Positions 3,535 to 5,091 of a stretch of 5,891 bases of DNA are shown in pieces. The position numbers and the translations under genes were made by a program. The DNA is taken from positions 1-5,891 of the forward strand of contig CAMPGR010000177.1 of the NCBI GenBank assembly GCA_946885605.1. The letters run 5' to 3'. Numbering within the stretch: position 1 is the first letter of the stretch; every line of letters starts with the position of its first letter. This DNA is from an uncultured Pseudomonadota bacterium (GTDB taxonomy: Bacteria > Pseudomonadota > Gammaproteobacteria > Burkholderiales > SG8-41). Below the pieces are notes generated by a model that was given only the letters and a program-made list of their open reading frames with translations, did no database searches and was not told the DNA's origin.

Positions 3535-5091
3535 TCACTGCACCGGCTTGATCGTCGATTCGACCACGCGCGCGTCGAAGTTTTCCACGAGCTCCCGCAC
3601 GAACGGATCCTGCTCGATCTCCGCGACGGCCTGCGCCTGCCGGCGCTGCCGCTCGCGGTCCGCGAGCGCGGCGGGCGAGCTGCCGTTGCCGTCTCCCACG
3701 GTGATCGTCACGCGCACGTTCGCGCCGAAGCGCTGCTGCAGCGCCGCCCTCAACTTCTCCTGGTAGGGCTTGTCGAGGAGCCGCTCGTGGAGCCTTGCGA
3801 TGGAAAGCTCGATGCGCTCCGCGTCCTGATGGATAAGCTCGCAATGCTGCGCCAGCATGCGCGTCATGCCGGAGAGGCCCAGTTGCTCGATCAGGGTGCT
3901 CCAGTCCGCCTTATCGTCGTTTTTTTTTGCAGCGGCCGGCTCATCAGCGCCTGCTTCGCCCGGCACGGAAGCGGCGCGCGGCGCAGGCGCGGCCGCCGCA
4001 GCGCGTGGCGCACCGGGCGCGAAAGCGAGCATGCGCAGCAACGTCATGGTAAATCCCGCGTACTCGTCAGGAGCGAGCCCGATGTCGGCGCGTCCCTGCA
4101 GCGCTATCTGGTAATAGAGCTGCAGGTCCTCCGGGTCGAAGGACCGCGCGAGCTCGAGCAGGCTTTCGCGCTCCGGCTCGTCTTCGGCAACCGCGTCCGG
4201 CAGCACTTGCAGCAATGCAAGACGGTGCAGGAGGACGCCCAGGTCCTGCAGCGCCATCTCGAGTGACAGGCTGCGCCCCGCCATGCGATCGGCCTCCGCG
4301 ATAAGGGCAGCCGCATCGCCTGCAGCGAGCGCCCGCAGCAGAGTGTGGAGGTAACCCTGGTCGACCGCACCGAGCATGGCGCGCACCGCAGCCTCTTCCA
4401 CCCGGCCGCCGCCATGCGCGATCGCCTGGTCGAGCAGGCTCAAGGCATCGCGCATGCTGCCCTGCGCGGCGCGGGCGAGCAACCCCAGCGCGGGAGCTTC
4501 GAACGCCACGCCTTCCGCTTCGAGTATTTTTTGGAGCTGAGAGCGGATCTGCGCCTGCGGAATCTGCTTCAGGTTGAACTGCAGGCAGCGCGACAGCACC
4601 GTCACCGGTATCTTCTGCGGGTCGGTTGTCGCGAGCACGAACTTCACGTGCTCGGGCGGCTCCTCGAGCGTCTTCAGCATCGCGTTGAACGCACTGCGCG
4701 AGAGCATGTGTACCTCGTCGATGATGTAGACCTTGTAGCGGCCGCTGGTCGGCGCGTAGAGCGCGCTCTCCAGCAGCTCCCGCATGTTGTCGACCTGTGT
4801 ATTCGAAGCGGCGTCGAGCTCGACGAGATCCACGTATCGTCCGGCGTCGATCTCCGTGCACGCACGGCACTGCCCGCATGGCTCCGCGCTTACCCCGGTT
4901 TCGCAGTTGAGCGCCTTGGCGATGATGCGGGCGAGCGTGGTCTTGCCCACGCCACGCGTGCCGGTGAAAAGATAGGCGTGATGGAGGCGCTGATCACGCA
5001 GCGCGTTGGTCAGTGCCGTGACGACATGCTCCTGTCCCACGAGCTGGGAAAAGGAACGCGGACGCCACTTTCGGGCAAGAACCTGTGTCAC
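3535..5091 (-). CDS. dnaX: DNA polymerase III subunit tau (and probably gamma), DnaX
   Basis: Motor subunit of the sliding-clamp loader; tau also tethers the polymerase alpha subunit. Seen: the N-terminal signature VLARKWRPRSF; Walker A GTRGVGKT (residues 44-51); a zinc site at C63, C72, C75 and C78; Walker B IIDEVHML (123-130); the arginine-finger motif SRC (167-169); and a collar domain (about 220-350). An Ala/Pro-rich linker (about 353-388) follows, then a C-terminal domain (about 392-518) resembling the E. coli alpha-binding domain V, with FDARVVESTIKPV near the end. At 518 aa it is much shorter than E. coli tau (643). The missing length falls where domain IV, which binds DnaB helicase, would be. 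The GTG start is placed by alignment with E. coli (QVLARKWRP near residue 3); the Shine-Dalgarno sequence is poor. A nine-A run at codons 388-391 is a likely slippage site (separate entry). Confidence 0.97.
   Translation of the reverse strand: MTQVLARKWRPRSFSQLVGQEHVVTALTNALRDQRLHHAYLFTGTRGVGKTTLARIIAKALNCETGVSAEPCGQCRACTEIDAGRYVDLVELDAASNTQVDNMRELLESALYAPTSGRYKVYIIDEVHMLSRSAFNAMLKTLEEPPEHVKFVLATTDPQKIPVTVLSRCLQFNLKQIPQAQIRSQLQKILEAEGVAFEAPALGLLARAAQGSMRDALSLLDQAIAHGGGRVEEAAVRAMLGAVDQGYLHTLLRALAAGDAAALIAEADRMAGRSLSLEMALQDLGVLLHRLALLQVLPDAVAEDEPERESLLELARSFDPEDLQLYYQIALQGRADIGLAPDEYAGFTMTLLRMLAFAPGAPRAAAAAPAPRAASVPGEAGADEPAAAKKNDDKADWSTLIEQLGLSGMTRMLAQHCELIHQDAERIELSIARLHERLLDKPYQEKLRAALQQRFGANVRVTITVGDGNGSSPAALADRERQRRQAQAVAEIEQDPFVRELVENFDARVVESTIKPVQ
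3911..3928 (-). promoter_or_regulatory. dnaX: Slippery A9 run in dnaX with immediate -1 stop (tau/gamma switch)
   Basis: On the coding strand, nine consecutive A residues (3928-3920) span codons GCA AAA AAA AAC, residues 388-391. Slipping to the -1 frame reads AAA CGA CGA TAA, with the stop at 3913-3911, giving a product of about 393 residues ending K-R-R. The +1 frame meets TGA at 3893-3891. Known precedents are the -1 ribosomal frameshift on A AAA AAG in E. coli dnaX and transcriptional slippage on a nine-A run in Thermus dnaX. I see no good internal Shine-Dalgarno sequence 10-14 bases upstream. A possible stem, CTGGAG/CTCCGG, starts about 15 bases downstream, further than usual for a frameshift stimulator. 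Transcriptional slippage is therefore at least as likely as ribosomal frameshifting. That it works is inferred. Confidence 0.75.

What the first reader, a model, noticed from the sequence alone, without database searches (positions are those of the whole stretch)
3891..3928. Nine-A slippery run in dnaX, with both alternative frames closed within 30 bases
In a GC-rich gene, an A9 run at codons 388-391 is conspicuous. A -1 shift meets TAA after K-R-R (3913-3911), and a +1 shift meets TGA at 3893-3891. Any slippage, ribosomal or transcriptional, would therefore give a protein of about 393-399 aa that keeps the ATPase and collar domains and loses the whole C-terminal alpha-binding domain, i.e. a gamma subunit. 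The lack of a clear upstream Shine-Dalgarno sequence and of a close stem-loop points towards Thermus-like transcriptional slippage rather than the E. coli mechanism.
Basis: partly seen in the sequence, partly recalled or inferred. Interest (0 to 1): 0.7.

Follow-up and report, generated by a model that had tools for sequence, protein, structure and literature searches.

The report
Conserved slippage run making clamp-loader gamma
A run of nine A's in a bacterial DNA-replication gene is kept in many related species while the protein around it drifts, with a stop signal waiting in one shifted frame, so the cell probably uses slippage there to make a second, shorter protein from the same gene.

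Summary
The A9 run lies at 3928-3920 (minus strand), dnaX codons 388-391, with a -1 TAA at 3913-3911 and a +1 TGA at 3893-3891. It is not chance. Of 66 readable dnaX loci of one betaproteobacterial family (window included), 27 have Lys-Lys at this place in the linker and 25 of the 27 have exactly A9, as NNA AAA AAA AAN. The residue before varies (S, A, V, L, P) and the one after is N or K, so nucleotides are conserved rather than peptide. In 24 of these genes tested, a -1 stop lies within 11 nt in 23, against 7.5% of other codon positions; +1 stops are only mildly enriched. The run sits between domain III and alpha-binding domain V, so slippage would give a gamma-like protein (393 aa for one extra A). 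No Shine-Dalgarno stimulator is seen and no hairpin, though the hairpin test is weak. I judge it a programmed slippage site, most likely insertion-biased transcriptional slippage as in Thermus dnaX. Ribosomal -1 frameshifting remains a real rival: two relatives with shortened runs keep a slippery heptamer and a -1 stop. No RNA or protein data were available. A new lineage for a known kind of device.

The parts
3535..5091 (-). dnaX, DNA polymerase III subunits tau/gamma, 518 aa, GTG start
   Evidence: ORF list; TIGR02397 dnaX_nterm E 1.1e-131; followed by ybaB and recR on the same strand
3920..3928 (-). A9 slippage run, inside codons GCA AAA AAA AAC (3930-3919, residues 388-391)
   Evidence: direct reading; A9 at the same place and phase in 25 of 27 Lys-Lys-bearing dnaX loci of the family set, window included
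3911..3913 (-). TAA stop of the -1 frame (equals one inserted A), after K-R-R; product 393 aa
   Evidence: a -1 stop within 11 nt in 23 of 24 A9 genes against 867 of 11564 other codon positions
3891..3893 (-). TGA stop of the +1 frame (equals one deleted A); product 399 aa
   Evidence: not kept close in relatives
4561..5037 (-). AAA+ ATPase part of DnaX (PF13177, residues 19-177), kept in both products
4012..4401 (-). domain III (PF12169, residues 231-360), kept in both products
3931..4011 (-). variable Ala/Pro-rich linker (residues 361-387) leading into the run
   Evidence: alignment of 120 homologues (the printed output was cut in the middle)
3550..3918 (-). tau domain V, alpha-binding (PF12170, residues 392-514), lost in the slipped product

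Best explanation
The A9 run is a programmed slippage site under selection. When nine A are read as nine, full-length tau is made; when one A is gained, reading enters the -1 frame and stops at once, giving a 393-aa protein with the ATPase and domain III but without alpha-binding domain V, i.e. a gamma-like clamp-loader subunit. Most likely the gain happens during transcription, by RNA polymerase slipping on A9 with a bias to insertion, as reported for Thermus thermophilus dnaX. Shown here: the run, the frames, the domain boundary, and nucleotide-level conservation of run and -1 stop. Inferred: that slippage occurs, that it is transcriptional, that gamma accumulates and works. My confidence is about 0.93 that the site is a selected slippage site, 0.85 that its product is gamma, and 0.6 for the whole statement including the transcriptional route.
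For:: 27 of 66 readable family loci have Lys-Lys at the site; 25 of the 27 are A9 in the phase NNA AAA AAA AAN; codon 1 ends in A in 24 of 24 (TCA, GCA, GTA, CCA, TTA), where codon usage predicts about 1.5; these genes were picked for carrying A9, but the two non-A9 genes (TCA, ACA) also end in A. The amino acid at codon 1 changes while the A stays; a -1 stop within 11 nt in 23 of 24 against 867 of 11564 other positions (7.5%); with amino acids fixed and codons resampled, 4.6 of 24 would have a stop within the first four shifted codons; 22 of 24 do. Run length: nine is more than a ribosomal heptamer needs, and both ends of the nine are kept. PMC6260861 (passages) reports no detectable slippage by E. 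coli RNA polymerase under eight A, and, citing earlier lacZ work, insertion at least twice as efficient as deletion on 7-11 A; one inserted A is exactly the -1 frame that is kept closed; no Shine-Dalgarno enrichment (mean duplex -3.3 kcal/mol, lowest -5.9; random sites -2.8; E. coli dnaX -7.4). In the Asn branch (13 of the 24) the fourth codon is AAC or AAT, not the AAG of the most shift-prone bacterial heptamer (PMC5009743, passage).
Against: No RNA or protein data. Two relatives whose runs are below nine keep a ribosomal heptamer and a near -1 stop: L117 (TCA AAA AAA CAA) and L131 (ACA AAA AAG ATT); G108 outside the family has A8. Transcriptional slippage should feed both frames, yet +1 stops are only mildly enriched (within 30 nt: 11 of 24 against 26%). 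The same paper that supports insertion bias (PMC6260861) also says that E. coli RNA polymerase slips more on poly-T than on poly-A, slips little overall, and in one in vitro A11 study mostly deleted. The hairpin test is weak: the E. coli control itself scores only z -0.72. 39 of the 66 readable family members have no Lys-Lys at the site, so gamma made this way is dispensable or made otherwise there. One genome (G257) of the A10 genus has no run of six or more A in its dnaX locus.
Confidence: 0.6

Rival explanations
1. Programmed -1 ribosomal frameshifting, as in E. coli dnaX: ribosomes slip on A_AAA_AAA or A_AAA_AAC/AAG within the run and end at the -1 stop, giving gamma from an unaltered mRNA.
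For: Only the -1 frame is kept closed. The A9 sites and also the shortened L117 (A7), L131 (A_AAA_AAG) and G108 (A8) hold a slippery heptamer in the right phase with a near -1 stop. The Lys branch (11 of 24) has A_AAA_AAG, the E. coli shift site.
Against: A heptamer does not need nine A, yet both extra ends are kept; no Shine-Dalgarno stimulator; no RNAalifold consensus pairing in the first 40 nt after the run in either branch (control windows existed only for the Lys branch); the Asn branch, which holds the window, lacks the AAG heptamer.
Confidence: 0.3
2. The Lys-Lys-Asn peptide itself is conserved for a protein function in the linker (a binding or cleavage site); the A-run is a by-product.
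For: SKKN or AKKN is common at this spot in close DnaX homologues: 80 of 120.
Against: The residue before the lysines varies over S, A, V, L, P with the third base always A, and the residue after is N or K with the first two bases AA, in the 24 A9 genes; codon usage does not predict this; the -1 stop would be unexplained.
Confidence: 0.03
3. A neutral or assembly-made homopolymer, or a replication-slippage (phase-variation) tract without programmed use.
For: Homopolymers are error-prone in reads and mutable in DNA (recalled).
Against: Same length and phase in 25 loci from separate genomes; A9 is rare in such genomes, 48 runs in about 45 Mb over 12 genomes picked for having it, and in two of them the dnaX run is the only one; off-frame copies would remove tau, whose E. 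coli counterpart is essential (recalled).
Confidence: 0.03

Closest known systems
Thermus thermophilus dnaX transcriptional slippage (Larsen et al. 2000; seen only as described in passages of PMC1088944, PMC5009743 and PMC6260861; the paper itself is not held)
   Same: A9 run in the sense strand of a single-ORF dnaX; stops in the shifted frames downstream; slipped product lacks the tau C-terminus.
   Different: Across relatives here only the -1 frame is kept closed close by; the host is a GC-rich betaproteobacterium; slippage itself has not been measured.
E. coli dnaX programmed -1 ribosomal frameshifting
   Same: Same gene, run before the tau-only C-terminal part, -1 stop within a few codons, slippery A-rich heptamer present.
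   Different: No Shine-Dalgarno match of the E. coli strength (-7.4 kcal/mol there), no hairpin detected, run of nine A instead of six A plus G.
Two-ORF dnaX genes with poly-A stretches predicted by GeneTack (Antonov et al. 2013, PMC3711429, passages)
   Same: Long A-runs in dnaX proposed to work by transcriptional realignment.
   Different: There the shift is needed to make tau; here tau is the unshifted product.
Caulobacter dnaX, gamma by proteolysis of tau (PMC5009743, passage)
   Same: Same end product.
   Different: No slippage; a possible route for family members that lack the run, not tested.

Membership tests
dnaX transcriptional-slippage genes (Thermus type) | single dnaX ORF with a run of nine or more A in the sense strand | tested here: met
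dnaX transcriptional-slippage genes (Thermus type) | nearby stops in both non-zero frames | tested here: inconclusive
   met in the window (6 and 26 nt after the run); across 24 A9 genes the -1 stop is kept close, the +1 stop ranges from 1 to 283 nt
dnaX transcriptional-slippage genes (Thermus type) | mRNA with variable numbers of A at the run | not testable with these tools
   no RNA reads
dnaX transcriptional-slippage genes (Thermus type) | slipped product keeps domains I-III and lacks the alpha-binding domain | tested here: met
   with frames; deduced from sequence, protein not observed
E. coli-type dnaX -1 ribosomal frameshifting | A_AAA_AAG-like slippery heptamer in frame | tested here: inconclusive
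   window holds A_AAA_AAA and A_AAA_AAC, not A_AAA_AAG
E. coli-type dnaX -1 ribosomal frameshifting | upstream Shine-Dalgarno-like stimulator | tested here: not met
   window -3.3 kcal/mol, E. coli -7.4
E. coli-type dnaX -1 ribosomal frameshifting | downstream stem-loop at a few nt | tested here: inconclusive
   window z +0.99, mean of 24 genes -0.46, random -0.14; the test has little power, E. coli itself -0.72
E. coli-type dnaX -1 ribosomal frameshifting | -1 stop just after the shift site | tested here: met

The most novel reading that the evidence does not exclude
In parts of the Burkholderiales, gamma is made by transcriptional slippage on a run held at nine or ten A for a long time; run length and the frame that is closed have changed together (A9 with a near -1 stop in one family, A10 with an immediate +1 stop in another genus), and at least one species has slid over to an E. 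coli-type ribosomal heptamer (L131, ACA AAA AAG with a -1 stop 9 nt on), a natural series of switches between the two mechanisms.
Probability: 0.4. Interest if true: 0.68.

Novelty: new member of a known kind. Interest (0 to 1): 0.52.

Why it matters
Why bacteria make gamma beside tau has been controversial (PMC5009743, passage, which takes the diversity of routes to gamma as a sign that it matters). A clade in which the nucleotides of the slippage site are kept while the linker peptide drifts, next to a sister clade that lacks the site, gives comparative evidence that gamma-making is selected in some lineages and absent or made otherwise in others. It also offers close relatives (L130/L131, L122/L117) for testing when transcriptional and ribosomal slippage replace each other.

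Tried and rejected
Considered and rejected: a conserved peptide motif (the residue before the lysines varies but its third base does not); an assembly artefact (same run at one place in 25 loci); a feature shared by other A9 genes of these genomes (36 other A9 runs were fetched; blastn found four similar pairs: two pairs within one genome, one (L266/L282) whose match does not cover the run, and one (L250/L269) that begins at the run and reads as intergenic with a hairpin beside it; whether the other runs lie in coding sequence was not settled).

Led nowhere: hairpin z-scores (weak by the E. coli control); RNAalifold, where the Lys branch gave -4.4 kcal/mol against a control mean of -6.7 over 18 windows, and the Asn branch got no control windows because my anchor string was not found in enough of its sequences; a class-wide pattern scan gave 0 of 369, which is no evidence of absence because the anchor was drawn from Burkholderiales-type sequences. 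The second Rfam search gave one group II intron match in L250, not followed.

Selection effects: the 24 genes were picked for having A9; the fair denominator is the 27 Lys-Lys-bearing of 66 readable loci. L148, the 25th A9 locus, was missed because its reading frame is broken upstream in the assembly; it is not in those statistics. The 12 genomes were picked because their dnaX has A9. Sequences are related (L133 and L141 have the same site), so counts are not independent events; the fewest changes of the A9 state on the DnaX core tree were 7 (24 of 63 rows with A9).

Full report
What is there. The window carries, on the minus strand, dnaX (5091-3535, 518 aa), ybaB and recR, the order also seen in E. 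coli. No whole genome is held for the window; some close homologues carry names such as Burkholderiales or Betaproteobacteria MAGs. In dnaX, codons 388-391 read GCA AAA AAA AAC, a run of exactly nine A at 3928-3920. The -1 frame meets TAA at 3913-3911 and the +1 frame TGA at 3893-3891, so one added A gives 393 aa and one lost A gives 399 aa. No run of eight or more A occurs elsewhere in the window and none in 200 shuffles.

Domain context. Pfam places domain III at 231-360 and the alpha-binding tau domain V at 392-514. The run at 388-391 lies in the Ala/Pro linker between them, so a slipped product keeps ATPase and domain III and loses domain V, the make-up of gamma.

Conservation in the family. 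A locus from a 77%-identical MAG (L006) gave a genome handle, and its family holds 74 genomes. From 66 of them one dnaX locus each was read (30, 1, 35), 67 with the window; the other eight had no dnaX hit that reached the site and were not fetched. One search read 64 of the 67; one search looked at the three it missed: L148 has A9 (TCA AAA AAA AAC, with TGA in the -1 frame 6 nt after the run), L118 has no Lys-Lys and no run of six or more A in its DnaX frame, L153 ends before the site. Together, of 66 readable loci, 39 have no Lys-Lys before the conserved Trp and 27 have it. Of the 27, 25 have exactly A9 in the phase NNA AAA AAA AAN. The other two are L117 (TCA AAA AAA CAA) and L131 (ACA AAA AAG ATT). 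The linker around the site varies freely. In the 24 A9 genes tested, codon 1 encodes S, A, V, L or P, always with A in the third place; codon usage would give about 1.5 of 24 (the genes were picked for A9, but both exceptions also end in A). Codon 4 is AAC, AAT or AAG. Across these genes AAA is 145 of 397 Lys codons outside the site, and 1 of 13 in the window gene. The DnaX core tree needs at least 7 changes of the A9 state.

The stop. In 23 of 24 A9 genes a -1 stop begins within 11 nt of the site, against 867 of 11564 other codon positions and 50 of 773 linker positions in the same genes. The stop is TAA in some and TGA in others, at 3, 6, 9, 12 or 21 nt after the run, so it has turned over while being kept. 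With amino acids fixed and codons resampled, 4.6 of 24 would have a stop within four shifted codons; 22 have one. +1 stops lie within 30 nt in 11 of 24, against 26% elsewhere.

Other lineages. In 399 genomes drawn from the order, a run of six or more A before a dnaX-type anchor was found in 14; one of these, G356, does not look like dnaX on translation. The 13 others, judged by anchor and translation: A10 in six (G092, G139, G316, G345, G373, G401), A9 in four (G057, G160, G201, G222), A8 in G108, A6 in G094 and G427. The six with A10 belong to one genus of 11 genomes; of the rest of that genus G257 has no run of six or more A in its locus and the other four were not readable at the site. G116 has A9 but was caught only by the looser pattern, which hit 41 of 399 genomes, eight of them in what looks like dnaX. 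G116, G160 and G201 are one family of three, all A9. The sites of G057, G160, G201, G222 and G108 have a -1 stop 5 nt after the site and G116 2 nt after it; the A10 genus has a +1 stop 1 nt and a -1 stop 20 nt after it; the two A6 sites have no near stop. So the near stop goes with the long run.

How rare such runs are. In 12 A9-bearing genomes (about 45 Mb, picked for that reason) there are 51 rows, 48 distinct runs of nine or more A, 12 of them in dnaX; in G016 and G067 the dnaX run is the only one in the assembly. By my rough hand estimate, not computed in a call, base composition alone would give a number of the same order, so this shows rarity, not avoidance.

Which mechanism. For transcriptional slippage: the run is kept at nine although a ribosomal heptamer needs seven; no Shine-Dalgarno stimulator (mean -3.3 kcal/mol, lowest -5.9; random -2.8; E. 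coli dnaX -7.4 by the same measure); the Asn branch lacks the AAG heptamer. PMC1088944 (passages) puts evident selection against slippage-prone runs at nine nucleotides in a large share of 108 genomes. PMC6260861 (passages) reports no detectable slippage by E. coli RNA polymerase under eight A and, from earlier work, at least twofold more insertion than deletion on 7-11 A; one inserted A is the -1 frame that is kept closed. Against it, the same paper finds E. coli polymerase more prone to slip on T than on A and cites an in vitro A11 case dominated by deletion. For ribosomal frameshifting: only the -1 frame is kept closed, and the shortened sites L117, L131 and G108 keep a heptamer and a near -1 stop. 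The hairpin test does not decide, because the E. coli control scores only z -0.72. I put transcription at about 0.6 and the ribosome at 0.3; both may act.

Known or new. Slippage in dnaX is known from Thermus (transcription) and E. coli and kin (ribosome); PMC3711429 (passages) also lists Neisseria under the ribosomal type and predicts poly-A two-ORF dnaX genes. Searches for dnaX with betaproteobacteria or Burkholderia found no paper in the held library, and in the listings no title or start of abstract names this lineage; papers outside that library were not searched. I call it a new member of a known kind, with unusually clear nucleotide-level conservation.

Noticed in passing
window 5825-5891 (-): 3' part of a bacterial small SRP RNA gene (RF00169, 40.2 bits, gathering 40), cut by the window end.
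   Followed up: no
window 5224-5766 (-): PagL-type lipid A 3-O-deacylase (PF09411, E 9.8e-40), without an NCBIfam match.
   Followed up: partly
window 1705-1769: The ends of the convergent reading frames for the L3 glutamine methyltransferase (+) and RluB (-) overlap by 65 bases.
   Followed up: no
L131 (G054) and L130 (G056): Close neighbours on the tree: L130 has GCA AAA AAA AAG (A9), L131 has ACA AAA AAG (E. coli-type heptamer), both with a -1 stop 9 nt after the run.
   Followed up: partly
G092 genus (L184-L187, L189, L192): dnaX with A10 (GAA AAA AAA AAG) and an immediate +1 stop, the opposite frame from the window's family.
   Followed up: partly
L006 / L118 (G001, contigs C225 and C138): The assembly of the named MAG splits dnaX over two contigs within the linker; the second piece has no Lys-Lys and no A-run at the site.
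   Followed up: partly
L148 (G061): The dnaX frame is broken in the assembly near residue 330, upstream of an intact A9 site; whether real or a sequencing error is unknown.
   Followed up: no
L250 and L269: An A9 next to a GC-rich hairpin, apparently intergenic, is similar in two genomes (G008, G038), possibly a terminator read from the other strand.
   Followed up: partly
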